From positions 1 to 14,880 of the forward strand of contig JAJYOH010000083.1 in assembly GCA_021796315.1 (NCBI GenBank): a stretch of 14,880 bases of DNA, read 5' to 3'. The translations under genes were made by a program, and so were the position numbers. Of this stretch, positions 4,358 through 14,880 are shown one piece after another. The notes beneath the pieces were generated by a model. It made no database searches, was not told the DNA's origin, and worked only from the letters and a program-made list of their open reading frames with translations. Origin of the DNA: Chloroflexota bacterium (GTDB lineage: Bacteria > Chloroflexota > Anaerolineae > Anaerolineales > Villigracilaceae). Positions within the stretch are counted from its first letter, which is position 1, and every line of letters starts with the position of its first letter.

Positions 4358-5851
4358 TCAACCGACATGCAGTTCGATCACCTGACGGAAATGGAAACCG
4401 TAGATGGCGAATGTGATCGCCAGCGGGAATAGGCGTGGACGCCGGAACAAAGTCCAGAAAAAGAGCCGCCAGTATTGGACGCGTTCGGCGCCGCGGATGC
4501 CCAGTTGGTAAATAGACCGCCACAGAGCCAAAATATATTGCGGTTCCAAATGGATTCTGATTTTGGGCGGCTGGTACTCATGAAGGAATGTCAAAACGCG
4601 CTCGTAATAGAATTGTGGCGCATAGATCTGCTCAAGAATTTTACGATAGCCTTCTCTCAGCGGCTCCAATCCCATCCTAGGGATGATGTTGGTCGAGCCA
4701 TCCACGTTATCGCCTGAAAATTCATTTATCAGACGACCTTCTTTTTGCATGCGCTTATACAGCCGAGTTCCTAATGGAGCTTGCAGTAACCCAACCATAG
4801 CCGTCACAATGCCGCTCTTCTGAATGAAGTCAATCTGCTGTTGGAAGATCGAGGGAGAATCATTGTCGAACCCGACAATGAAACCACCCTGCACCTGGAG
4901 ACCTGCGCGCTGGAGTTGCTTGACGCTCTCCACCAGATCGCGGCCTTTATTTTGGTTCTTACTGCATTCGGCCAGGCTGTCTTCATTCGGCGTCTCGATG
5001 CCGACAAAGACCGTGTCGAACCCGGCTTGTGTCATCAGGTCCATCAGTTCGGGATCATCGGCCAGGTTGATGGACGCTTCGGTGCTGAACGGCATCCCAG
5101 CTTTCCCTTTCCGCCATTCGACCAAGGCGGGCAGGACTTCGGACTTGATCTGTTTCTTGTTACCGATAAAGTTGTCGTCCACGAAGAAGAGGCTCTTGCG
5201 CCAGCCCAGCGCGTAGAGACTGTCCAACTCGGCAATGATCTGCGCGGCGGTCTTGGTGCGCGGACGATGTCCCAGCAACGCGGTCACGTTGCAGAAGTCG
5301 CAATTGAACGGACAGCCGCGCGAAAACTGTATACTGATCGTGTCGTAATATTTGAGATTCGCCAGCCGCCAAAGCGGGACCGGGGTTTGGTGGATATCGG
5401 GAAATTCCGCAGACGAGTAAACGCGTCCAGCCTGACCCGCTAACAGGTCCCGCACGAACGGCGCGAGCGTCTCCTCCGCCTCGTTCAAGACGAAGTGATC
5501 CACGTCCGGGAATTGTTCGTGTTCCATCGTGAAGAGCGGACCGCCCGCCACCACTTTCGCTCCGGCTGTTTTACAGCGTTCGATGACCGCCTGCGCTGAT
5601 TCGCGCTGTACGATCATAGCGCTGACGAAAACATAATCGGCCCATGCCAGGTCTTCATCCGTGAGGCTGGTCACATTTAGATCAACCAGCCGTTTTTCCC
5701 AATCAGAAGGCAGCATGGCCGCAACGGTCAGCAGACCTAATGGAGGCGCACCAGCCTTCTTCCGGATAAATTTAAGCGCGTGTTTGAAACTCCAAAAGGT
5801 GTCGGGAAATTCAGGATAAACAAGCAGGATCTTTAAGAGATTCTCCTTCAT
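4358..5851 (-). CDS. B12-binding radical SAM protein with a DUF4070-type C-terminus
   Basis: A 497-residue enzyme predicted to use cobalamin, S-adenosylmethionine and a [4Fe-4S] cluster. The N-terminal part (about 5-145), opening with ILLVYPEFPDTFWSFKHAL, is the Rossmann-like B12-binding domain. The cluster motif is CPFNCDFC at 180-187 (Cys180, Cys184, Cys187), inside a radical SAM barrel of about 170-380. The C-terminal third (about 385-490), rich in aromatic and basic residues, matches the architecture of the DUF4070 group that includes the hopanoid C-2 methylase HpnP. Methylation of a lipid or another unactivated carbon is therefore possible, but the substrate is not shown and no hopanoid genes are nearby. 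The ATG at 5851 has AAGGAG 5 nt upstream. It is the first intact gene of the row leading to the site-2 protease, and a degraded membrane-protein gene lies just upstream. Confidence 0.92.
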   Translation of the reverse strand: MKENLLKILLVYPEFPDTFWSFKHALKFIRKKAGAPPLGLLTVAAMLPSDWEKRLVDLNVTSLTDEDLAWADYVFVSAMIVQRESAQAVIERCKTAGAKVVAGGPLFTMEHEQFPDVDHFVLNEAEETLAPFVRDLLAGQAGRVYSSAEFPDIHQTPVPLWRLANLKYYDTISIQFSRGCPFNCDFCNVTALLGHRPRTKTAAQIIAELDSLYALGWRKSLFFVDDNFIGNKKQIKSEVLPALVEWRKGKAGMPFSTEASINLADDPELMDLMTQAGFDTVFVGIETPNEDSLAECSKNQNKGRDLVESVKQLQRAGLQVQGGFIVGFDNDSPSIFQQQIDFIQKSGIVTAMVGLLQAPLGTRLYKRMQKEGRLINEFSGDNVDGSTNIIPRMGLEPLREGYRKILEQIYAPQFYYERVLTFLHEYQPPKIRIHLEPQYILALWRSIYQLGIRGAERVQYWRLFFWTLFRRPRLFPLAITFAIYGFHFRQVIELHVG

Positions 5852-6462: not shown

Positions 6463-7299
6463 CTACTTCAAGCCAGAATGCAGGAAACTGTCGATAAACT
6501 GGCGCTGGAAGATCAAGAACAGTACCAGCAGTGGTCCAACCACAATTACTGTGCCGGCTGTGACCAGCGGCCACTGCGCCCCGATCTCGCCCAGCTGGGT
6601 AAGTACTGCCAGACCGACCGTCAGTGGGCGGCTGTTGGTGCTATTGGTTACTATGAGGGGCCACAGAAAATCATTCCAGTGAAAACTGATCGAAGATAAT
6701 GCAAAAGCAACCAGTGCCGGGCGCGCAGGCGGAATATAAACATACCATAAGGTTTGCAGCCAGTTGGCGCCATCCATGCGGGCGGCATCATCCAGGTCCT
6801 GTGGGATCGTCTTGAAGGTCTGGCGCATTAAGAAGGTGCCAAATGCCGAACCAAAGAATGGCAGCATGACTGCCAGCAATGTGTCGAATAATCCCAGATT
6901 GCGGATGGTGGTGTAGTTTGGCACGATCAAGGCACTTGAAGGGACCATTAGCTGCAACATAATCAAAAAAAATAGGATGTTCTGGCCGCGGAACGTAAAG
7001 CGGGCGAAGGCATATCCTGCCAGGCAAATCGTCACTAATTGAAAGGCGAGGATGCCAAGCACAATCAGTATGGTGTTGACATAGTATTTTGCAAAGGGGG
7101 CAATATCGAGCGCCTGGAAATAGTTGGACAAGGTCGGCTGGCTGCTCCACCACAAGTTGCTGGCGCTCAGCGGCTCATTGGGTGAATGGAACGACACAGC
7201 CAATGTCCACAGGATGGGGACGGTCCAGGCCAGGGCGATAACGCCCAGGGCTAGCAGTCCGGCGGTGTTGAAGGCAGAGTGTAGGCGGCTTCTATTCAT
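6463..7299 (-). CDS. Sugar ABC transporter permease, MalG/UgpE type (CUT1 family)
   Basis: Inner-membrane permease of 278 residues, a normal length for the MalG class, with six predicted membrane segments starting at about residue 12. The cytoplasmic EAA loop that docks on the ATPase is visible as DAARMDGANWLQTLWYVYIP in the second half, followed by PARPALVAF. The ATG at 7297-7299 overlaps the stop of the preceding permease gene by 8 bases (ATGAATAG), so translation is probably coupled. It forms the channel together with the MalF-like protein encoded at 7292-8206 and is fed by the lipoprotein encoded at 8220-9590. No ATPase gene is present in the operon, as is common for CUT1 systems that share an MsmX/UgpC-type ATPase encoded elsewhere. 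The substrate cannot be deduced from the permease. Confidence 0.95.
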   Translation of the reverse strand: MNRSRLHSAFNTAGLLALGVIALAWTVPILWTLAVSFHSPNEPLSASNLWWSSQPTLSNYFQALDIAPFAKYYVNTILIVLGILAFQLVTICLAGYAFARFTFRGQNILFFLIMLQLMVPSSALIVPNYTTIRNLGLFDTLLAVMLPFFGSAFGTFLMRQTFKTIPQDLDDAARMDGANWLQTLWYVYIPPARPALVAFALSSISFHWNDFLWPLIVTNSTNSRPLTVGLAVLTQLGEIGAQWPLVTAGTVIVVGPLLVLFLIFQRQFIDSFLHSGLK

Positions 7300-8206
7300 A
7301 GGTAGCCCGGCGCTCGGTGGTGATGAAGTTGATGACTGTAAAGATCAAGAGAACGACGATCAGGATCACGCTCATTGCGTTGGCCCGGCCGACATCCATG
7401 TAGCTGAAAAGCGTTTGCCACAAATCGAATAGCAGCATACTGGTTGAGTTGATCGGCCCGCCGCCGGTCATGATATAGATCTGGTCGACCGTTTCAAAGG
7501 CGTTGATCACGGCGATGGTGGTCACAAATAGTGTGGTGCCCATCAGCAGTGGCAATGTGATGTAATACGTGGATTGCAGCACGTTGGCACCGTCCAGTTT
7601 GGCAGATTCAAAGATATCGTGCGGAAGACCCTGTAATCCGGCCAGAAAGAACACCATGAAATAGCCGGTCTGTTTCCAGATGCCCAGGATCATCAGCGCT
7701 AGTAGCGCCAGCCTCGGCTCACCAAGCCAGTTTTGGCTGGGAATGTGAAAGAATTCGATAAAGACATTTAATAATCCATAGTCCGGCGTGTACATGAACA
7801 ACCAAATGGTAGCCGCACTGACCATTGGCAGAACGGTCGGATAGAAGAATGCCAGGCGATAGAGTCCCAGCGCGCGGAACTTGCGGTTGAGCAGCAACGC
7901 CAGCAGCAACGCCAGGAACACACTGATTGGAACGGTGACGATCACATAAATCACTGTGTTCATAAAAACATCTCGGAAACCCGAATCAGAAAACAGCGCT
8001 GTATAGTTTCCGGGTCCGATAAACTTAGGCACCTGTACTGCCTGGTTTTCGGCGAACAGACTGCTGTATGTCACATGCAGCAATGGCAACAACGTAAAGA
8101 GCGCCACGAAAAAAAAGGTCGGGGCGATCAAAAAATAGGGCAGAGCAGCGGCCCAAAAGCGCGACCGCCGCTCTGTAGAGTTGTTGACTTTTGTTTGGAA
8201 GTTCAA
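7292..8206 (-). CDS. Sugar ABC transporter permease, MalF/UgpA type (CUT1 family)
   Basis: Inner-membrane permease with six predicted segments. The first follows soon after the start (ALPYFLIAPTFFFVALF), and the EAA loop is visible as ESAKLDGANVLQSTYYITLP. Start choice is difficult. The frame is open to an ATG at 8278, but that would overlap the binding-protein gene by 59 bases and has no ribosome binding site. A TTG at 8204-8206, 13 nt after the binding-protein stop codon, gives a 304-residue protein with about 17 residues before the first membrane helix, which is normal for the family. The TTG also has only a weak upstream GTGGTG. I chose it on overlap grounds; the ATG remains possible. The gene overlaps the next permease gene by 8 bases. 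Confidence 0.9.
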   Translation of the reverse strand: MNFQTKVNNSTERRSRFWAAALPYFLIAPTFFFVALFTLLPLLHVTYSSLFAENQAVQVPKFIGPGNYTALFSDSGFRDVFMNTVIYVIVTVPISVFLALLLALLLNRKFRALGLYRLAFFYPTVLPMVSAATIWLFMYTPDYGLLNVFIEFFHIPSQNWLGEPRLALLALMILGIWKQTGYFMVFFLAGLQGLPHDIFESAKLDGANVLQSTYYITLPLLMGTTLFVTTIAVINAFETVDQIYIMTGGGPINSTSMLLFDLWQTLFSYMDVGRANAMSVILIVVLLIFTVINFITTERRATYE

Positions 8207-8219
8207 AGCACCACTATTA

Positions 8220-9590
8220 TTATTGACTGAACTGTGAAAGAACTTGGTCTGCCTGTTGCTGAGCAGCTTTGAGTGCATCCGCGACGGTGCTCTTGCCGGT
8301 CAGGGCAGCCTGGACGGCGTCGCCCAGGAATTTCTGGATTTGAGCGTTGTCATGTGTGGCCAGTTCAGGTCCGGCATATTGGAGGCCGGCAGCCGCCACA
8401 GCAGCCTGTGGCACCTTTGCAATTTGATCTTTCATGGCTTGGGTGTTATAGGATGATTGGCGCGATGCAACGTAACCAGTATTAATGCTCCAATCGGCCT
8501 GGGTATCAACCGAAGTCATGAATTGAATGAACTTCCATGCTGCGGCTTGATGATCGGCAGGGATACCTTTCAGCATGTACAAGTTTCCGCCACCGGTTGG
8601 GGCACCATAGCCCTTCTCGCCAACAGGGTAGCTGACACCAACGTTAAATTTGGCTTGCTTAAGGATATTGGTCAACGAACCGCTGGAATGCCAGATCATG
8701 GCAGCCTTACCGTTGACAAAATCGTTAGGCATATTGGCCCAAAGCAAAATACCGGGTGGCATTACTTTGTACTTGTTGGGTAGATCGGTAAAGTCCTGAA
8801 GGGCCTGGGCTACCTCCGGTGTATCAAAGGTTACCTTGTTGGAAGCTGTAAAAACATTCGATCCACCACCGATAACGAAAGACTGGAACAGCCAGTATGG
8901 AATTCCGTCTGAAGAAATCTCAATACCCCAGGTGCTGCCGTCAGCTTTGGTCAGTTTTTGGGCATCGGCAACCATTTCCGCATAAGTTGCGGGGCCTTTG
9001 CTATCATCCAAGCCGGCGGCTTTGAACATGTCTTTATTGTAGTAAAGCACCGGAATGGAGCGCTGGAACGGCAGGCTCCAAACATGATCCTGATACTTCG
9101 AATTTGCCAGGTAGGCGGGGAAGAAATCAGACGTGAAAGTATCGCCGCCAGCAGCCTGGATGTAATCATCCAACGGCATGATGGCGTTCGCGTCAACCAG
9201 CGAATAGAGATCTGTCGAGAGCAGTACAGCTACATCCGGAGGCGTACCACCGCCCTTTATTGTGGTTTGAATCTTGGTGAGGGTATCGCCATAGCCTCCG
9301 GAAAGGACGGCGTTCACCTTGATATCAGGGTTGGCTGCTTCGAACTGGGTGATATAACCATCAATTAGTTGGGTAATCGGTCCAGCTACGGCAACTGGAT
9401 AGTAGAAAGTGAGTTCGACTGGTGCGCTGGTCGCTGTAGGTACTGCAGCCGGGGCGGGCGCTTGTGTCGCGGGCAAAGCGGTCGGTTGCGCGGGAGCCGT
9501 TGTAACTGCCGGTGCACAGCCGGTCAAGACGCCAAACAGCAGTACTAGGGCTATTGAAATCGAAATCGCAGAAAAACGTTTTTTTTGCAT
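8220..9590 (-). CDS. Extracellular sugar-binding lipoprotein of the ABC importer
   Basis: Solute-binding protein of 456 residues (bacterial extracellular family 1, like MalE/UgpB). Residues 1-25 form a lipoprotein signal peptide: a basic start MQKKRF, a hydrophobic core, and the lipobox LTGC with the acylated Cys25. A low-complexity Ala/Pro/Thr linker follows (about 26-58), as expected for a protein tethered to a membrane without a periplasmic sorting system. The mature domain begins near ELTFYYPVAVAG and includes the family-typical stretch DYIQAAGGDTF and many aromatic residues for stacking on a sugar. A GTG at 9596 lies only 2 nt from the AGGAG box, whereas the ATG at 9590 lies 8 nt from it, so the ATG was chosen. 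It is the first gene of the importer, 124 nt downstream of gntR. The ligand is unknown; sugars or glycerol-phosphate-like compounds are both handled by this family. Confidence 0.95.
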   Translation of the reverse strand: MQKKRFSAISISIALVLLFGVLTGCAPAVTTAPAQPTALPATQAPAPAAVPTATSAPVELTFYYPVAVAGPITQLIDGYITQFEAANPDIKVNAVLSGGYGDTLTKIQTTIKGGGTPPDVAVLLSTDLYSLVDANAIMPLDDYIQAAGGDTFTSDFFPAYLANSKYQDHVWSLPFQRSIPVLYYNKDMFKAAGLDDSKGPATYAEMVADAQKLTKADGSTWGIEISSDGIPYWLFQSFVIGGGSNVFTASNKVTFDTPEVAQALQDFTDLPNKYKVMPPGILLWANMPNDFVNGKAAMIWHSSGSLTNILKQAKFNVGVSYPVGEKGYGAPTGGGNLYMLKGIPADHQAAAWKFIQFMTSVDTQADWSINTGYVASRQSSYNTQAMKDQIAKVPQAAVAAAGLQYAGPELATHDNAQIQKFLGDAVQAALTGKSTVADALKAAQQQADQVLSQFSQ

Positions 9591-9662
9591 TTTCACTTCT
9601 CCTGATCAATTTTGGGGAAAACCTGGATAGATGGAACGGCGAAAATCCCATTGACGAAAATC

Positions 9663-9674
9663 GTACAAGAGTAC
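9663..9674. promoter_or_regulatory. GTAC-N4-GTAC element upstream of the binding-protein gene
   Basis: GTACAAGAGTAC lies 73-84 bp upstream of the binding-protein ATG, in the 124-nt gap after gntR. The repeated GTAC half-sites give it dyad character, so it could be a binding site for the adjacent GntR-type regulator or part of a promoter for the importer. It does not match the GGACGTCC palindrome in the gntR promoter region, which weakens that idea. I see no convincing -35/-10 pair in the gap, so the importer may be read through from the gntR promoter. Confidence 0.25.
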
Positions 9675-9714
9675 TGAACTTATTTTTATTCTGACTAATT
9701 TATTGAGATTGTCC

Positions 9715-10476
9715 CTAATCCTTTCTCCTATTGGAAAGATCTTTCTTATGGATCATCCGCACAATATTCAATTCAACAATACTTGAATTGAAGCAAATCT
9801 TACTGTGAGCAATAGGTTGGTTTTCTTCTGAAAAAATTGTTGACCGAACGCTGAGGATGGGTGTTCCTTCTGGCAATTCCAAGTACTTTAGAAATGCGGG
9901 ATCAATAACTGATGCTCTGATGTGAGACTGAATATGATGTAAGGGAATATCAAACGAAGCTGATAAGAACTGAATCATATTGCCGTCAAAAGCATTCCAA
10001 TTTAAACCCAGTGTTTCAATCGCTGGGGTAATATAATCTTCAATAAATATCACTGGCAGTCGATCGGCGCGTACAATCCGCTTGATGCAGCATATCTTTG
10101 AAGAAGTTGGTGCTGTAAACACCTCGCAAACATCGATTGGTGCGAGGTCATAACTTATAGAAAGGGTTTGAAAGGTGGGTGTAAAACCACTCTCTCTAAT
10201 GATTTGTGTAAAAGGTGAGAAATCGTTAAGCGAGTCGCGAATAACAGGAGAATGTGCCACAAAAGTACCGATTCCGTGGCGACGAATGATAATGCCCTCA
10301 TTTTCCAATTCTATGTATGCTTCCCGCAGGGTATTTCGGCTGACCCCCAGTGTTTTTGCAATAGCTGTTTCTGATGGCAGTTGATCTTGATGTTCAAGTT
10401 CGTGCTGGTTAATGTAATTGAGTAAATACTCTTTTACTTGGGTTAACCGCGAACTGGTGTTGATAAACACACTCAT
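9715..10476 (-). CDS. GntR-family transcriptional regulator, HutC subfamily (UTRA ligand domain)
   Basis: A DNA-binding regulator of 253 residues. The N-terminal winged helix (about 10-75) shows the GntR features QLPSETAIAKTLGVSRNTLR, then EAYIELENEGIIIRRHGIGTFV. Residues about 95-240 have the UTRA fold pattern of the HutC group, including EDYITPAIE, and RSTIFSEENQPIAHSKICF near the end. UTRA domains bind small effectors such as amino-sugar phosphates, trehalose 6-phosphate or urocanate, so the effector is likely a small phosphorylated sugar or metabolite. It precedes the sugar importer on the same strand and is divergent from the phosphodiesterase gene, so it probably controls both arms and itself. 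The ATG at 10476 has only a weak GAAAG upstream. The gene looks more AT-rich than the importer genes. Confidence 0.93.
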   Translation of the reverse strand: MSVFINTSSRLTQVKEYLLNYINQHELEHQDQLPSETAIAKTLGVSRNTLREAYIELENEGIIIRRHGIGTFVAHSPVIRDSLNDFSPFTQIIRESGFTPTFQTLSISYDLAPIDVCEVFTAPTSSKICCIKRIVRADRLPVIFIEDYITPAIETLGLNWNAFDGNMIQFLSASFDIPLHHIQSHIRASVIDPAFLKYLELPEGTPILSVRSTIFSEENQPIAHSKICFNSSIVELNIVRMIHKKDLSNRRKD

Positions 10477-10521
10477 GGCTAGTCTTTCGAGTAGTAGGAG
10501 AGGAAAGGATTATTGGGGAGG

Positions 10522-10550
10522 TTGGACGTCCTACAACTTCATAGTATAAT
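10522..10550 (+). promoter_or_regulatory. Sigma70-type promoter for the phosphodiesterase/P-loop operon
   Basis: TTGGAC (10522-10527), a 17-bp spacer and a consensus TATAAT (10545-10550) point rightward. Transcription would start near 10557, leaving about 54 nt of leader before the ATG at 10611. The -10 overlaps that of the opposing gntR promoter, and the -35 overlaps a palindrome at 10524-10531. Confidence 0.65.
10524..10531. promoter_or_regulatory. GGACGTCC palindrome, candidate operator
   Basis: An 8-bp perfect palindrome, extended with one mismatch to 14 bp (GTTGGACGTCCTAC, 10521-10534). It covers the -35 of the plus-strand promoter and the expected start point of the gntR transcript. 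One bound dimer could repress both directions. That the neighbouring GntR protein is the binder is inference. Confidence 0.4.
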
Positions 10551-10569
10551 AAAATTTGGTTAATGTCAA
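10541..10569 (-). promoter_or_regulatory. Sigma70-type promoter for gntR and possibly the importer
   Basis: Read on the minus strand, a consensus TTGACA (10569-10564) is followed either by TATACT (10548-10543, spacer 15) or by TACTAT (10546-10541, spacer 17). Transcription would start near 10536, about 60 nt before the gntR ATG. The -10 bases are the same ones used by the rightward promoter, so the two promoters face each other and should compete for polymerase. Confidence 0.6.
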
Positions 10570-10573
10570 TAGC

Positions 10574-10597
10574 TGTTTATGGATGTGTTTATGGATG
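10574..10597 (+). repeat. Perfect 12-bp tandem duplication in the leader of the phosphodiesterase gene
   Basis: TGTTTATGGATG occurs twice without a gap (10574-10585 and 10586-10597). It lies in the predicted 5' leader, after the rightward start point and before the ATG at 10611. Because 12 is divisible by three, the duplication keeps the frame of the short leader ORF in which it sits. Confidence 0.9.
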
Positions 10598-10614
10598 ATT
10601 TACTCCTTAAATGA
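10579..10614 (+). other. Possible 11-codon leader ORF overlapping the phosphodiesterase start (ATGA)
   Basis: An ATG at 10579 opens a frame encoding MDVFMDDLLLK that ends at TGA 10612-10614. This stop overlaps the ATG at 10611 as ATGA, the classic layout for translational coupling. The downstream gene lacks a Shine-Dalgarno box at the normal distance, which makes coupling or leader control plausible. The leader ORF itself has no clear ribosome binding site, so it may be chance. Confidence 0.3.
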
Positions 10615-11465
10615 AAATCACATTTCTTGGCACCTCCGGTGCGAATGCTTTTCCAGAAGCCTTTTGCAAATGCACGAATTGCGAACAGGCACGAATACTG
10701 GGTGGCTCAAATTTACGGAAACGGTCCTCATTATTGGTCAATGATGATTTACTCATTGACCTTGGTCCAGATATAATGGCGGCTTCTCAATTCCACGGCT
10801 GCCCTTTGTCAAATGTCCGTTATTGTATCCAAACACATCCACATGCAGATCATTTAGACGTATCGCATTTCCTCTCGCGCAGCCCGGATCATGGCGTCAT
10901 CGGCGCTCCCTGCCTAAATTTCTATGCATCGTCTGAGACGCTGCAACGAGCAGCTCAAACCTTTGAGCGGGACCTTTCGAGTGATAGTCTTCTGTCGCCT
11001 GAAACGCAGAAATACTTGAATCTGAAATTACATGCTATTAAACCCTTGGAACCTTTTACATTTGGCACTTATCGCGTAATTGCATTTCCGGCTAATCATG
11101 CGCCATCAATGGGGGCGATGGTATATGCTGTTGAATCGGACAAAAGATGTTTTTTTTATGGCGCTGATACCGCAACTTTTTTTGAACAAACCTGGCAAGC
11201 TTTTCATCAATTTGAAATGCGATTCGATGCGGTAATCCTTGACCATACTTATGGATTAATAAGATCAGGAAGTGATCATTTAAATGCAAATCAGGTTATT
11301 GAACACATAACACGAATGCGTAATGAAGGCTTATTAACCCCGAATTCCCGTGCCTTTGCAACTCACATCGCACATGAAGGCAATCCTGTACATCAAGAAC
11401 TGGTAATCTTCGCGAAGCAACATGGGTATGAAGTCGCTTGCGATGGGCTTTGTGTTGAAATTTAG
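10611..11465 (+). CDS. PhnP-like metallo-beta-lactamase-fold phosphodiesterase
   Basis: A cytoplasmic metal-dependent hydrolase of 284 residues. The active-site motif is HPHADH (His76, His78, Asp80, His81), with further likely ligands His163 and Asp186. Near the N-terminus, Cys19, Cys21 and Cys24 (CKCTNC), and at the end THIAHEGNP with His252 and His255, reproduce the extra zinc site of E. coli PhnP (three cysteines in CxCxxC plus a histidine three residues after a catalytic histidine). PhnP opens 5-phosphoribosyl 1,2-cyclic phosphate in phosphonate breakdown. Here no phosphonate C-P lyase genes are present, so a different cyclic or diester phosphate is more likely the substrate; that is inference. 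The protein is about 30 residues longer than PhnP. It is divergent from gntR, starts with an ATG lacking a close ribosome binding site, and is followed after 61 nt by the P-loop gene. Confidence 0.85.
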   Translation: MKITFLGTSGANAFPEAFCKCTNCEQARILGGSNLRKRSSLLVNDDLLIDLGPDIMAASQFHGCPLSNVRYCIQTHPHADHLDVSHFLSRSPDHGVIGAPCLNFYASSETLQRAAQTFERDLSSDSLLSPETQKYLNLKLHAIKPLEPFTFGTYRVIAFPANHAPSMGAMVYAVESDKRCFFYGADTATFFEQTWQAFHQFEMRFDAVILDHTYGLIRSGSDHLNANQVIEHITRMRNEGLLTPNSRAFATHIAHEGNPVHQELVIFAKQHGYEVACDGLCVEI

Positions 11466-11526
11466 GGAATATCCCCAACCTCGAGCGCGGCTGTGACTTC
11501 TCGGCTCGCTGAAAATGTAAAATAGA

Positions 11527-12264
11527 ATGAGTGAAAAAAACACATTTGACATAATCTTGCTAATTGCCAGACCTGCCGCCGGAAAAAGCGAGATCATCGA
11601 TTATCTTAAAAGGATCGCCCTGGATATACGCACACAACGTTTTCATGTCGGCAACTTCGAAGAGATTGATGACTTTCCGATGCTTTGGACTTGGTTTGAA
11701 GAAGATAAATTGCTTGAGGAAATGGGGCATCCGCGGCTGCACACAGATCACAACGGAAATTTTCTGCATCAATATTTCTGGGATCTATTAATTGAGCGTA
11801 TCGGGTTGGAATACCAGAAGAAACTGCGAGATATTTCGAATTATGATGAATCGTTTACAACAATTGTTGAATTTTCGCGGGGGACAGAACATGGCGGGTA
11901 TCAATCGGCTTTTCTTCACTTATTTCCGCAAATGCTCAAAAAAATGGCAGTCCTATACATTGATGTTTCATGGGAAGAATCCTTACGAAAGAATCATCAG
12001 CGGTTTAATCCTGAGAAACCCGATAGTATCCTGGAACATTCTTTGCCGGACTCGAGACTGGAACGTCTCTATAAGGAAGTTGATTGGGGTGAAGTCAGCG
12101 GTGGGGATCCGCAGTACCTGACTATTCAGGGCATTCGGGTTCCGTATGTAGTATTTGACAATGCAGACGATGTGACTACGCCAAGAGGCGTTGTGTTGGG
12201 TGAAAGACTCGAACAGGCTTTGGAAAAATTATGGATTCTTTATGATAAGCGGATAATTGATTAG
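11527..12264 (+). CDS. P-loop NTPase/kinase-like protein of unknown function
   Basis: A protein of 245 residues that I do not recognise as a named family. It opens with a hydrophobic strand followed by ARPAAGKSE, a Walker A loop in which the first glycine is alanine (Ala14, then Gly19, Lys20, Ser21). A second strand near residues 140-147, VLYIDVSWEES, could hold a Walker B-like acidic residue, and 'FVEFSRGTEHGG'-like sequence near 115-125 may form a substrate pocket. No membrane segments or DNA-binding motif are visible. The size and fold pattern fit a small-molecule kinase or nucleotide-dependent transferase rather than an ABC ATPase (there is no LSGGQ signature), so it is not the missing transporter ATPase. 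The ATG at 11527 has only a poor ribosome binding site. Position after the phosphodiesterase gene suggests the two proteins act in one pathway. It ends 73 nt from the convergent glucoamylase gene. Confidence 0.8.
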   Translation: MSEKNTFDIILLIARPAAGKSEIIDYLKRIALDIRTQRFHVGNFEEIDDFPMLWTWFEEDKLLEEMGHPRLHTDHNGNFLHQYFWDLLIERIGLEYQKKLRDISNYDESFTTIVEFSRGTEHGGYQSAFLHLFPQMLKKMAVLYIDVSWEESLRKNHQRFNPEKPDSILEHSLPDSRLERLYKEVDWGEVSGGDPQYLTIQGIRVPYVVFDNADDVTTPRGVVLGERLEQALEKLWILYDKRIID

Positions 12265-12337: not shown

Positions 12338-14740
12338 TCAGACAATATTTACCGAAAAATCCGTTCCCTCCCATGTGTTGCTGGCAGACCAATGAAAGGT
12401 GAATACCAGGGCTGTATTGGATGGCATTGTATCCACTGGCAAGTCTACGATGTAGACACCCAGGCCGGTCGCGCGGGTTTCCGTATCCTGGATGGTCCGC
12501 CAATTATCCACGCTCCAGTGAACTGTGCCCATCGCCAAAAGCTCTATGCGCAGCACTTTACCCGAAGGCATTGTCTGGCACTTATAGTTGAAACGCCAGG
12601 TGGCGCGATTAGATCTAGTCTTTGCCATGATATAACGCTTGACGGTTTGAGGCGGCATATCGAAAACACGCCCTTCACGCAGAGAGCGGAGCAGTTTGAC
12701 ATATTCGGCATGCGCCCAGACGAGAGGCATGGCTGAACCGGACGGTTTGCCAAAGAAGAGTTCCTTTTCAGGGATGTCGGCCGTGTCCCATACCTGCTCA
12801 GGCAGTAGTTTCCCCACACCGGTGCTGGCTTCAAGAACGTGAAGTAGACGCGCAACTTCATCGACATGTCCGGCAGCCAGCTCGTAATGGGCGCGCTCCC
12901 CGGCCAGCAGGGGCCAAACGCGACCCACACCCGTGCCATCGAAAGGACCGCCGTCATTATGCTCACCATAGCCATCATCATTGTAGCGATGCCAGCCAGG
13001 ACCGTAAGGCAAATCGGTTTTCAGCAGCGCGTCGATCACTTTGACGGTGTTGACGATGCGTGGATCATCTGCCGAGCGCAGACCAAAACGCACGAGCGCC
13101 AGGGCGTCTGGGCTGATGATGTGCGCCGCCTGTTCGACGCTATCCCCCGGCGGACGATTCTTGATCGGTACGAAACCCTTGGAAGGTGAAGCAGCATCAG
13201 CGACGTCCGGAGACGAGATGCGCACATAATAACCATCTACGCCGGTCTGATGGGCAAGGTCAGTGTCGGTTGCGTAGATCCAGTGTTCGATGTTGGAATT
13301 CCACGTATCGGCTGTTTCTCGAATATAAGCGCCGATCTGCGGTTCTTCATTTTGATCAGCGAGGTCGGCTGCCGCCAGCAAGGCCGCAATTTCCGCCGCC
13401 AAGGTGAAAGGCGAATAGCCGGGGTCTTCCTCCCAACGGTCTTGCGCGGTGACCGGCCCGTTTTTCACCAGGAAGCTCGCAGCGCGTTTAACCATCGGCC
13501 ATAAACGTTTGAGATCATCCGGTTTCAGCGCTTTTTCCCGGTAAGCCAGATCGACCAGCAGGATCGGGAAAGCCGTTTCATCCATCTGAACGCCGCCCCA
13601 ATACGGACTGCCATCCAGCCACATGTTCTGGGGCCAATGACCATCCGCTTCCTGGGTGACTTGCAGGTAATATAAAACCCGGCGGGCATCGCTATGAGCC
13701 CCGGCGGCCAGGAGGCCGCCCGCAGATTCCACCAAGTCGCGCGGCCAGGAGAGATGATAGCCGCCCAGATCATCATCGCCCTTGGAAAAACCCCAGGGGA
13801 TGGAGAGACTTGCAATCAAGGCGCCTGGAAACCGTTTTGACTCATGGATGCGCATGGCTGCCGCGCTGACCATAAAAAGCTCCTGCGTCTCTTTATCATG
13901 GTCTTTTGAACTCAAAGGGAGCAGAGTTTGCAACCAGTTTTGCCATTCATGGATATAGACCGAGCGGGCGCTCTCGAACCCATCCAACAGGCTGGACAGA
14001 GCGCGCTGACCGGCTTCGAAGGAATTTCCTCCAAAGCCCACTGCCAGTAAAAAACTTCCTCCTGATTGCAGATCCACTTCGCCGGTCAGCGCCACGTTGC
14101 CATTTTCGGCGCGAGTGTATTTCCAGGTCAATTGTTTATGCTGGTCCAAATCCTGCCAGCCATCCGAAGCGCCGACAAACCCGGCGGAGCGGTTAAGCCA
14201 CGGCGCAGAACAGGCCAACGCCAGGGCAAAGCCTTGCCGTTCGGCAAACAGCATTGGCACGCCTTTATATTCACCAATCCAAGCAGTGTTATTGGCACCC
14301 TCATTTCCCAGATGTGGAGCCAGCTCCACATATACGTGATAGTCCTCCAGTTTTCCTTGTAGGGCCGTAAATTGTGTGCGCTGTAACACCACATCCCGTT
14401 TAGGGTCGGCCAAGATTTCTTTCTCGATCCGATATCTTCCATCCTGACAGGTATTGGTCAGTTTATAGGCGGGCACGCCCGGGGCAAGCGCCTCAACAAC
14501 CTGCGTTGTCTGGCGTTTCTCTTCCGAAAAGAAATCCGTTCCCGAGGTGACGACCAGGCCCATATCCCGCATGCAGGCCTGGTCTTCTCTTGGATAATAG
14601 ACTTCATCGAAAATGCCGTGACTGAGCGTAAACCAAACGCGGCTAGTCTGGTTCAAGGCTGTTCCAACACCGGTCTTGGCGCTGGATGTCCAGCGTGGTG
14701 GAATACCAGGCCATCCGGGGGCTAAAGATTCAGTACTCAT
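12338..14740 (-). CDS. Glucoamylase / glucodextranase-type glycoside hydrolase, family GH15
   Basis: An 800-residue exo-acting hydrolase that should release glucose from alpha-glucans. Residues about 1-270 form the N-terminal beta-sandwich of bacterial GH15 enzymes, starting WPGIPPRWTSSAKTGVGTAL and including SHGIFDEVYYPR. The (alpha/alpha)6 barrel spans about 280-690, with IPWGFSKGDDDLGGYHLSWPRD (about 314-335), RWEEDPGYSP (435-444; Glu438 is the likely general acid) and VWPLLAGERAHYE (608-620; Glu615 is the likely general base). The last 90 residues (about 712-800) form an extra beta-rich domain, possibly carbohydrate-binding. There is no signal peptide, so the enzyme is probably intracellular, acting on glycogen or imported oligosaccharides. 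The ATG at 14740 has AGGAG 7 nt upstream; a longer start at 14770 would overlap the preceding gene. It lies 19 nt after that gene, on the same strand. Confidence 0.94.
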   Translation of the reverse strand: MSTESLAPGWPGIPPRWTSSAKTGVGTALNQTSRVWFTLSHGIFDEVYYPREDQACMRDMGLVVTSGTDFFSEEKRQTTQVVEALAPGVPAYKLTNTCQDGRYRIEKEILADPKRDVVLQRTQFTALQGKLEDYHVYVELAPHLGNEGANNTAWIGEYKGVPMLFAERQGFALALACSAPWLNRSAGFVGASDGWQDLDQHKQLTWKYTRAENGNVALTGEVDLQSGGSFLLAVGFGGNSFEAGQRALSSLLDGFESARSVYIHEWQNWLQTLLPLSSKDHDKETQELFMVSAAAMRIHESKRFPGALIASLSIPWGFSKGDDDLGGYHLSWPRDLVESAGGLLAAGAHSDARRVLYYLQVTQEADGHWPQNMWLDGSPYWGGVQMDETAFPILLVDLAYREKALKPDDLKRLWPMVKRAASFLVKNGPVTAQDRWEEDPGYSPFTLAAEIAALLAAADLADQNEEPQIGAYIRETADTWNSNIEHWIYATDTDLAHQTGVDGYYVRISSPDVADAASPSKGFVPIKNRPPGDSVEQAAHIISPDALALVRFGLRSADDPRIVNTVKVIDALLKTDLPYGPGWHRYNDDGYGEHNDGGPFDGTGVGRVWPLLAGERAHYELAAGHVDEVARLLHVLEASTGVGKLLPEQVWDTADIPEKELFFGKPSGSAMPLVWAHAEYVKLLRSLREGRVFDMPPQTVKRYIMAKTRSNRATWRFNYKCQTMPSGKVLRIELLAMGTVHWSVDNWRTIQDTETRATGLGVYIVDLPVDTMPSNTALVFTFHWSASNTWEGTDFSVNIV

Positions 14741-14759
14741 ATATTCTCTCCTGACACAG

Positions 14760-14880
14760 TTACTGTCCATTCGCTGAAAAATTTTTGAAATCCTGAATTT
14801 CCTGATAAGCTTGGTGAATGACCACCGAGCCCATAATCACATCCGAACGGATTGACGACTTTCCCTTACTGCTAGCAGTC
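14760..14880 (-). CDS. C-terminal end of a gene entering from the right, possibly a universal stress protein
   Basis: The minus-strand frame is open from the right edge to TAA at 14760-14762 and encodes 39 residues, starting TASSKGKSSIRSDVIMGSVV and ending FSANGQ. The pattern S-x-G-[KR]-S followed about ten residues later by the hydrophobic-GSVV turn is like the ATP-binding C-terminal part of UspA-type proteins, although the usual 'PVLVV' final strand is not evident and the spacing is one residue longer than typical. The identification is weak. The open frame and the 19-nt gap to the glucoamylase with its ribosome binding site support the view that a real gene ends here and that the two are co-transcribed. 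Confidence 0.4.
   Translation of the reverse strand, partial: TASSKGKSSIRSDVIMGSVVIHQAYQEIQDFKNFSANGQ

What the first reader, a model, noticed from the sequence alone, without database searches (positions are those of the whole stretch)
8220..12264. Regulated locus joining a sugar importer to a PhnP-like phosphodiesterase and an unknown P-loop protein
A HutC-type GntR regulator sits between a CUT1 sugar importer and a divergent pair: a phosphodiesterase with the full PhnP zinc pattern (CxCxxC, HxHxDH, HxxH) and a kinase-like protein with an altered Walker A loop. UgpABCE-type importers are related to CUT1 systems and take up glycerol phosphodiesters; PhnP acts on a cyclic ribose phosphate. 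I infer a route that imports a sugar or sugar-phosphate diester, opens it with the hydrolase, and phosphorylates or otherwise processes it with the P-loop protein. No C-P lyase, no glycosidase and no dehydrogenase is present, so it is not a standard phosphonate or sugar operon.
Basis: partly seen in the sequence, partly recalled or inferred. Interest (0 to 1): 0.72.

Follow-up and report, generated by a model that had tools for sequence, protein, structure and literature searches.

The report
Organophosphate importer, phosphodiesterase and unnamed kinase
A bacterial gene cluster, probably from a Chloroflexota species, appears to import phosphate-bearing small molecules and process them with a zinc phosphodiesterase and a kinase from a large, well-conserved protein family that has no known function.

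Summary
The binding protein is UgpB-type: it keeps the four phosphate-contacting residues (two Tyr, two Ser) reported for UgpB; 17 of 17 sequences aligned keep them if Thr counts for the second Ser (10 of 17), against 0 of 12 cells in three distant CUT1 controls. In 8 of 13 plasmid loci read, its relatives sit in clusters with phosphoesterase, G3P or C-P lyase genes. The P-loop protein is a confident small-molecule-kinase fold (pLDDT 91) with no Pfam or NCBIfam name and 6,455 homologues. In Spirochaetota, 8 of 8 close homologues with readable upstream DNA follow an importer: four UgpB-like (44-51% identical to the window's), four PhnD/PhnE-like. PhnP-like hydrolases at 26-31% identity recur beside CUT1 permeases, a PhnDCE set and a nucleoside-permease-like gene. 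Substrate and chemistry stay inferred: glycerophosphodiester or nucleotide-type diester. 'No glycosidase' is wrong: a glucoamylase lies 73 bases away. No other locus read has all three parts, the kinase family is far more widespread than the module, and Chloroflexota neighbourhoods could not be surveyed. New variant of a known kind; the kinase family is the interesting part.

The parts
8220..9596 (-). UgpB-like CUT1 substrate-binding lipoprotein
   Evidence: SBP_bac_8 147.7 bits; best NCBIfam UgpB 139.7 bits, below cut-off 411; best PDB matches E. coli UgpB 6x84/4aq4, 125 and 123 bits; phosphate-binding Tyr/Ser quartet conserved
7292..8278 (-). CUT1 permease A (UgpA-like)
   Evidence: BPD_transp_1; UgpA model 135 bits, below cut-off 335; 49-51% identical to permeases of L023, L039, L040, L041. 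The ORF overlaps the end of the SBP gene, so the true start may lie downstream
6463..7299 (-). CUT1 permease E (UgpE-like)
   Evidence: BPD_transp_1; UgpE model 118 bits, below cut-off 297; 49-51% identical to the same four Spirochaetota permeases
9715..10476 (-). GntR-family regulator with UTRA domain (HutC/PhnF type)
   Evidence: GntR 68.9 and UTRA 72.1 bits; best NCBIfam PhnF 95.7 bits, below cut-off 156.8; HutC 87.2, below 220
10477..10610 (.). divergent control region with overlapping promoter-like sites on both strands (+ 10523-10550, - 10569-10541) and a tandem 12-base repeat 10574-10597
   Evidence: promoter-like sites in the scanned region are no more than in shuffles (6 found, mean 7.8), so suggestive only
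10611..11465 (+). PhnP-like metallo-beta-lactamase-fold hydrolase, probably a phosphodiesterase
   Evidence: Lactamase_B_2 54.8 bits; PhnP model 49 bits, below cut-off 272; metal-site patterns shared with L073, L075, L077, L078
11527..12264 (+). P-loop kinase of an unnamed family

Best explanation
A regulated organophosphate-scavenging module. The UgpB-branch CUT1 importer takes up a small phosphate-bearing molecule, most likely a phosphodiester such as a glycerophosphodiester or a nucleotide-type diester. The PhnP-like zinc hydrolase cuts the diester inside the cell. The P-loop protein, a small-molecule kinase, phosphorylates the released hydroxyl compound (or a phosphomonoester product) so that it enters metabolism. 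The GntR/UTRA protein senses an intermediate and controls both directions from the divergent control region. Shown by sequence or model: the gene order, the families, the conserved phosphate-binding quartet, the kinase fold, and the recurring linkage of importer with kinase and, for more distant homologues, of hydrolase with importers. Inferred: the ligand, the order of reactions, the kinase substrate and the regulation.
For: SBP keeps the four phosphate-contacting residues that PMC12718374 (passages) reports as shared by UgpB, the GPC-binding and the U3G-binding proteins but not by glucose-binding ones; 17 of 17 sequences aligned (window included) keep them if Thr counts for the second Ser (10 of 17), 0 of 12 cells in three CUT1 SBPs of other loci. 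SBP relatives sit in clusters with phosphoesterase, G3P or C-P lyase genes in 8 of 13 plasmid loci read, among them the about 50%-identical Paenibacillus protein in a row of G3P antiterminator, HAD phosphatase, SBP, two permeases and a GDPD-domain protein. P-loop gene: 8 of 8 close homologues with readable upstream DNA follow an importer on the same strand; in L020 the importer passes the curated cut-offs for the phosphate/phosphite/phosphonate binding-protein subfamily and for PhnE. MBL type (26-31% identity): directly behind CUT1 permeases in 5 and about 2 kb from them in 1 of the 10 Spirochaetota matches above 100 bits; at the end of a His-phosphatase/PhnD/PhnC/PhnE/PhnE row in 2 Cetobacterium plasmids; before a nucleoside-permease-like gene on the one E. 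coli plasmid read. Hydrolase and kinase homologues share 5 exact contig lengths of at least 3,500 bases, 0.16 expected.
Against: No locus read outside the window carries all three parts. The SBP loses UgpB's glycerol-contacting Glu66 (Ser) and Arg374 (Gln). The curated UgpB, UgpA, UgpE, PhnP and PhnF models are matched far below cut-off. Sugar-binding CUT1 proteins also match the SBP in the PDB, at 70-92 bits. The three control SBPs are only 17-20% identical, so part of the contrast is plain divergence. The two nearest Spirochaetota MBL homologues (L073, L074; 41-43%) have no importer near. G293 has an SBP 53% identical to L041's, with permeases, and no P-loop match. The SBPs next to the Spirochaetota MBL homologues that I aligned (L075, L077, L078, L079) lack the phosphate quartet, so there the hydrolase serves another importer type. 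Only one Chloroflexota neighbourhood was readable (L002), where the P-loop gene is 8 kb from a PhnC/D/E set. A glucoamylase is the window neighbour.
Confidence: 0.5

Rival explanations
1. Nucleotide-type salvage: the imported diester is a dinucleotide or cyclic nucleotide, the hydrolase yields nucleoside and nucleotide, and the P-loop protein is a nucleoside or nucleotide kinase.
For: Nearest folds include NMP kinases and deoxycytidine kinase; 18 of 56 family members match Pfam dNK at E up to 0.01 (which does not say which ones); distant homologues lie beside adenosine deaminase; an 8-oxoguanine deaminase over its cut-off adjoins one importer/kinase operon; an E. coli MBL homologue precedes a nucleoside-permease-like gene (262.7 bits, below cut-off 446); phosphodiesterases beside two SBP homologues match cyclic-nucleotide PDE models, below cut-off; the next PDB match of the SBP after UgpB is a T. 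thermophilus protein that I recall to be the U3G dinucleotide-binding one.
Against: The window kinase itself matches no dNK model. The closest SBP relative sits in a glycerol-phosphate cluster. None of the 11 window proteins scanned is a nucleoside enzyme. Gluconate kinase and dephospho-CoA kinase are near in fold too; the fold does not set the substrate.
Confidence: 0.22
2. Bystander kinase: the P-loop protein is a housekeeping enzyme of Chloroflexota and its place here is incidental; only importer and hydrolase form a module.
For: 6,455 homologues, the best 120 of them 73-96% identical, far more than the hydrolase (1,482 at E up to 0.001); distant homologues have other neighbours.
Against: Importer linkage in 8 of 8 readable Spirochaetota loci with two unrelated importer families; shared contig lengths with the hydrolase.
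Confidence: 0.2
3. Ordinary alpha-glucan locus: the CUT1 importer carries maltooligosaccharides for the adjacent glucoamylase, and the divergent pair is unrelated.
For: GH15 glucoamylase over its cut-off at 12338-14770; CUT1 importer; maltose/trehalose-binding proteins match the SBP in the PDB at 76-92 bits; weak match to the galactooligosaccharide model GanS, 24.5 bits.
Against: UgpB scores higher in both searches (139.7 bits; 125 bits) and no maltose model is listed at E up to 0.1; phosphate quartet conserved; the glucoamylase lies beyond the kinase gene, convergent with it.
Confidence: 0.1
4. A PhnP/PhnN-like ribose-phosphate branch: the hydrolase opens a cyclic ribose phosphate and the P-loop kinase acts as a PhnN analogue making PRPP, fed by import or by a C-P lyase elsewhere.
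For: PhnP is the best NCBIfam model of the hydrolase and PhnF of the regulator; a homologous SBP adjoins C-P lyase genes in Thermus; four P-loop homologues sit with PhnD/PhnE-type genes.
Against: No C-P lyase protein among the 11 window proteins scanned and none seen by eye in those four loci; PhnP and PhnF models are matched far below cut-off.
Confidence: 0.08

Closest known systems
Ugp system (UgpABCE with UgpQ; gene set recalled)
   Same: CUT1 importer architecture; UgpB, UgpA and UgpE are the best curated models; phosphate-binding Tyr/Ser quartet conserved; a likely cytosolic phosphodiesterase encoded alongside
   Different: PhnP-like MBL hydrolase instead of a GDPD, extra P-loop kinase, GntR/UTRA regulator, no ATPase gene among the proteins scanned, glycerol-contacting Glu and Arg replaced
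PhnP phosphoribosyl cyclic phosphodiesterase of the C-P lyase pathway
   Same: same MBL branch (best model) and metal pattern
   Different: 49 bits against a cut-off of 272; no C-P lyase protein among the window proteins scanned
NMP kinases / deoxynucleoside kinases
   Same: fold and Walker A; conserved DDF and EFxR motifs that by eye resemble substrate-site motifs of these kinases
   Different: 9-18% identity to the solved chains listed; the window protein matches no curated model; substrate unknown
Spirochaetota SBP-permease-permease-kinase operons (L023, L039, L040, L041)
   Same: importer 44-51% and kinase 56-61% identical to the window's
   Different: RpiR regulator instead of GntR where visible (L023, L040, L041; L039 is cut), no PhnP-like hydrolase in the stretch read

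Membership tests
Ugp importer | UgpB equivalog score (NF008211, cut-off 411) | tested here: not met
   139.7 bits
Ugp importer | two Tyr and two Ser that contact the ligand phosphate | tested here: met
   Y42, S121, S247, Y323 (E. coli mature numbering, recalled start) all kept in the window; residue roles from PMC12718374 passages, mapped by constant offsets of 22 and 19
Ugp importer | Glu66 and Arg374 that contact the glycerol hydroxyls | tested here: not met
   Ser and Gln in the window
Ugp importer | two-Trp clamp | tested here: inconclusive
   two alignments place this stretch differently
PhnP | PhnP equivalog score (TIGR03307, cut-off 272) | tested here: not met
   49 bits
PhnP | CxCxxC, HxHxDH, HxxH metal ligands | tested here: met
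   sequence and alignment; that these are the PhnP ligands is recalled
Deoxynucleoside kinase (PF01712) | Pfam dNK match | tested here: not met
   no match for the window protein; 18 of 56 family members match at E up to 0.01
P-loop nucleotide/nucleoside kinase fold | fold match over most of the chain | tested here: met
PhnF regulator | PhnF equivalog score (TIGR02325, cut-off 156.8) | tested here: not met
   95.7 bits
C-P lyase pathway | C-P lyase genes in the genome | tested here: inconclusive
   none among the 11 window proteins scanned; no genome is held for the window

The most novel reading that the evidence does not exclude
The P-loop protein founds an unnamed kinase family that acts on the products of organophosphate import, serving two unrelated importer families (UgpB-type and PhnD-type) in different lineages, with the PhnP-like hydrolase as its partner in Chloroflexota.
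Probability: 0.4. Interest if true: 0.66.

Novelty: new variant of a known kind. Interest (0 to 1): 0.5.

Why it matters
Thousands of well-conserved proteins, many from Chloroflexota, have no function assigned. Linkage of their Spirochaetota relatives to two independent organophosphate importer families gives them a testable role, and hints at how such bacteria recover phosphorus and carbon from phosphodiesters. It also marks an importer branch whose members keep the phosphate end of the UgpB pocket but vary the alcohol end, so ligand diversity can be tested directly.

Tried and rejected
A genome-contig scan with the single window protein found one locus only, which used the session's one scan; no Chloroflexota genome handle could be obtained, so the survey was done in Spirochaetota. 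Two viral-contig scans found no relative. The profile search of the PDB by sequence gave one meaningless match for the P-loop family (E 1.2). A first structure with 18 similar rows had pLDDT 69.8; the second with 56 diverse rows had 90.8. No repeat shared by the two control regions was found (searched each region by itself, and I compared them by eye); the tandem 12-mer does not exceed chance in number in the window (2 matches, 74 of 200 shuffles reach that). Literature searches for a UgpB/PhnP/kinase combination, for PhnP, dinucleotide uptake and GPC/UgpB residues were seen as listings only; none listed a paper on such a module. Of one paper, PMC12718374, I saw passages, not its supplement. 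Recalled, not read: that the T. thermophilus PDB entries 7c0f-7c1b are the U3G-binding protein; that UgpQ is a GDPD; PhnP and PhnN reactions; the E. coli UgpB mature numbering. Gene names given by eye are marked so. Absence of a family from the fold lists was not used as evidence.
Full report
What is there. The window (probably Chloroflexota, since the named ones among the nearest homologues of the two + strand proteins are Anaerolineales, Anaerolineae, Anaerolineaceae, Chloroflexi or Chloroflexota) holds, on the minus strand, permease E, permease A, a binding protein and a GntR/UTRA regulator, and on the plus strand a divergent pair: an MBL hydrolase and, 61 bases later, a P-loop protein. Its statement that no glycosidase is present does not: a GH15 glucoamylase over its curated cut-off lies 73 bases beyond the P-loop gene, convergent with it.

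The importer. The binding protein's best curated model is UgpB (139.7 bits, below the cut-off of 411). Its best solved relatives are E. coli UgpB (125 bits), then a T. thermophilus protein (102 bits), then maltose/trehalose and other sugar binders (92 bits and less). PMC12718374 (passages seen) reports that two Tyr and two Ser contact the ligand phosphate in UgpB and are shared by the glycerophosphocholine- and U3G-binding proteins but not by glucose-binding ones, and that a Glu, a Gly, an Arg and two Trp contact the glycerol part. Mapped to the window (constant offsets of 22 and 19 between numberings), all four phosphate contacts are kept. In the alignment the first three columns with Tyr, Ser, Tyr are invariant in 17 of 17 members (window included) and the second Ser is Ser in 7 and Thr in 10; the T. 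thermophilus protein has Thr there too. Three CUT1 binding proteins of other loci keep 0 of 12 cells (2 of the 12 are gaps; two of the three proteins are close relatives; all are only 17-20% identical to the window, so part of this contrast is plain divergence; in the alignment one of them, L077, has Thr in the second-Ser column). The Glu is Ser and the Arg is Gln in the window; across the 17 that Arg position reads R in 7, T in 6, Q in 3 and K in 1. So the phosphate end of the pocket is kept and the alcohol end varies. The Trp pair is placed differently by the two alignments and is left open.

Its relatives. I read 13 plasmid loci of binding-protein homologues: 3 rows of the 30-row spread list and 10 of the 25 rows of the best list, about one per genus (Pantoea twice), out of 1,408 records with a match. 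In 8 of 13 a phosphoester-, G3P- or phosphonate-related gene lies in the cluster: Paenibacillus (about 50% identical; G3P antiterminator 190 bits, HAD-IIA phosphatase, GDPD domain protein 120 bits), two Pantoea (metallophosphoesterase, one checked by Pfam), E. coli and Nitratireductor (phosphodiesterase matching the cyclic-nucleotide PDE models SpdA and CpdA below cut-off), Comamonas (Exo_endo_phos protein two genes on, and PhoX), Acuticoccus (annotated GDPD family, opposite strand) and Thermus (C-P lyase phnI, phnJ, two ATPases and phnM upstream). In 5 of 13 (Chelatococcus, Neorhizobium, Pseudoroseomonas, Paroceanicella, Roseicitreum) I counted none, though Roseicitreum has an annotated sugar-phosphate isomerase family gene next door and a YjdM gene, and Paroceanicella a DeoR/GlpR regulator.

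Its neighbourhoods. In 296 Spirochaetota genomes 10 had a match; with the orders of G256 and G048 (8 genomes each, 5 and 6 with a match) there are 11 loci at 53% identity or more. In 8 the upstream DNA is readable, and in all 8 an importer precedes the P-loop gene on the same strand: L023, L039, L040, L041 have binding protein, permease A, permease E, P-loop (binding protein 44-48%, permeases 49-51% identical to the window's), and L001, L020, L021, L022 have PhnD/PhnE-type genes (L022 only the end of PhnE, at the contig edge), then an ATP-cone plus PRK/uridine-kinase-like protein, then the P-loop gene. For L020 the binding protein and PhnE pass their curated cut-offs (194.8 over 112; 254 over 217). 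L025 starts at the ATP-cone kinase; L024 and L042 are cut. The ATP-cone kinase occurs at E up to 1e-60 in 6 of 296 genomes, 5 of which have the P-loop gene; the sixth is a 46% partial match on a cut contig. The importer also occurs without the P-loop gene: G293 has a binding protein 53% identical to L041's, with permeases, and no P-loop match. On the Chloroflexota plasmid CP069395 the P-loop gene stands 8 kb from a PhnC/PhnD/PhnE set. Distant homologues (about 25-40%) lie beside other genes: L026-L028 among genes that by eye are unrelated housekeeping genes, L029 and L031 beside adenosine deaminase and a CLP1-like protein.

The hydrolase. It has 1,482 homologues at E up to 0.001. In 392 Spirochaetota genomes 199 have some match; of the 10 matches above 100 bits, 5 (L075, L076, L078, L079, L080; some clearly close relatives of one another) lie directly behind two CUT1 permeases and 1 (L077) about 2 kb from them on the other strand; 4 (L073, L074, L081, L082) show none, and these include the two closest. 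The SBPs of L075, L077, L078 and L079 lack the phosphate quartet, so there the hydrolase serves another importer type. G111 has, besides, a binding protein 35% identical to L041's, two permeases and a different MBL protein in one cluster. On plasmids 53 records have a match: the 29.5%-identical E. coli gene (48 records; I read one, L038) lies before a nucleoside-permease-like gene and opposite a LacI-type regulator; in both Cetobacterium plasmids the gene ends a His-phosphatase, PhnD, PhnC, PhnE, PhnE row; the two Proteus records and the Burkholderia one are unannotated there and were not resolved (for one Proteus).

Kinase and hydrolase together. The protein search gives no neighbourhoods, but it gives the length of the longest contig. 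The lists hold the best 120 of 6,455 (plus window-type rows) and the best 120 of 1,482. This says that the two genes probably share contigs in some other metagenome assemblies; it does not give distance, and these are close relatives of the window.

How it most likely works. Import of a phosphate diester by the UgpB-branch importer (ATPase presumably encoded elsewhere), hydrolysis by the PhnP-like enzyme in the role that a metallophosphoesterase, GDPD or cyclic-nucleotide-type PDE may have in related loci, and phosphorylation of a product by the kinase. The nearest relatives' neighbours favour glycerol-phosphate chemistry; the kinase family's distant neighbours and folds favour nucleoside chemistry.

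Limits. No genome is held for the window, Chloroflexota neighbourhoods could not be surveyed, no locus outside the window with all three parts was seen among those read, and all functional statements rest on sequence, predicted structure and gene order.

Noticed in passing
   Followed up: yes
L020 2945-4276 (-), L001 5890-7218 (+), L021 10014-11345 (-), L022 11169-12509 (-), L025 92-1423 (+): An ATP-cone domain fused to a uridine-kinase/phosphoribulokinase domain directly precedes the P-loop gene in these five Spirochaetota loci: two kinases in one operon.
   Followed up: partly
L029 8626-13999, L031 8083-15622: Distant P-loop paralogues occur in pairs a few kb apart, with adenosine deaminase, a CLP1-like P-loop protein and an MBL-fold protein nearby.
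   Followed up: partly
window 4358-5851 (-): B12-binding radical SAM protein with DUF4070; best NCBIfam match is the PhpK-type P-methyltransferase model at 90 bits, far below its cut-off of 600.
   Followed up: no
L038 9493-14073 (E. coli plasmid pLH13-b-B): PhnP-like MBL gene with a nucleoside-permease-like gene and a 724-residue LacI-type regulator. The MBL gene is matched in 48 E. coli plasmid records; neighbours were read in this one only.
   Followed up: partly
L092 (Thermus plasmid pHB5008b): A UgpB-like CUT1 importer lies between C-P lyase genes and a second ABC importer whose binding protein matches aminoethylphosphonate models below cut-off.
   Followed up: no
L077 3336-12057: PhnP-like MBL gene near a CUT1 importer, a SIS-domain protein (Pfam; MurQ-like by eye), a BadF-type kinase and a GH3-like enzyme (both by eye): reads as an amino-sugar recycling locus.
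   Followed up: no
P0001 and P0245: A 96%-identical P-loop protein and a distant paralogue report the same longest contig length, 6984, suggesting both may occur on one contig of a close relative of the window.
   Followed up: no
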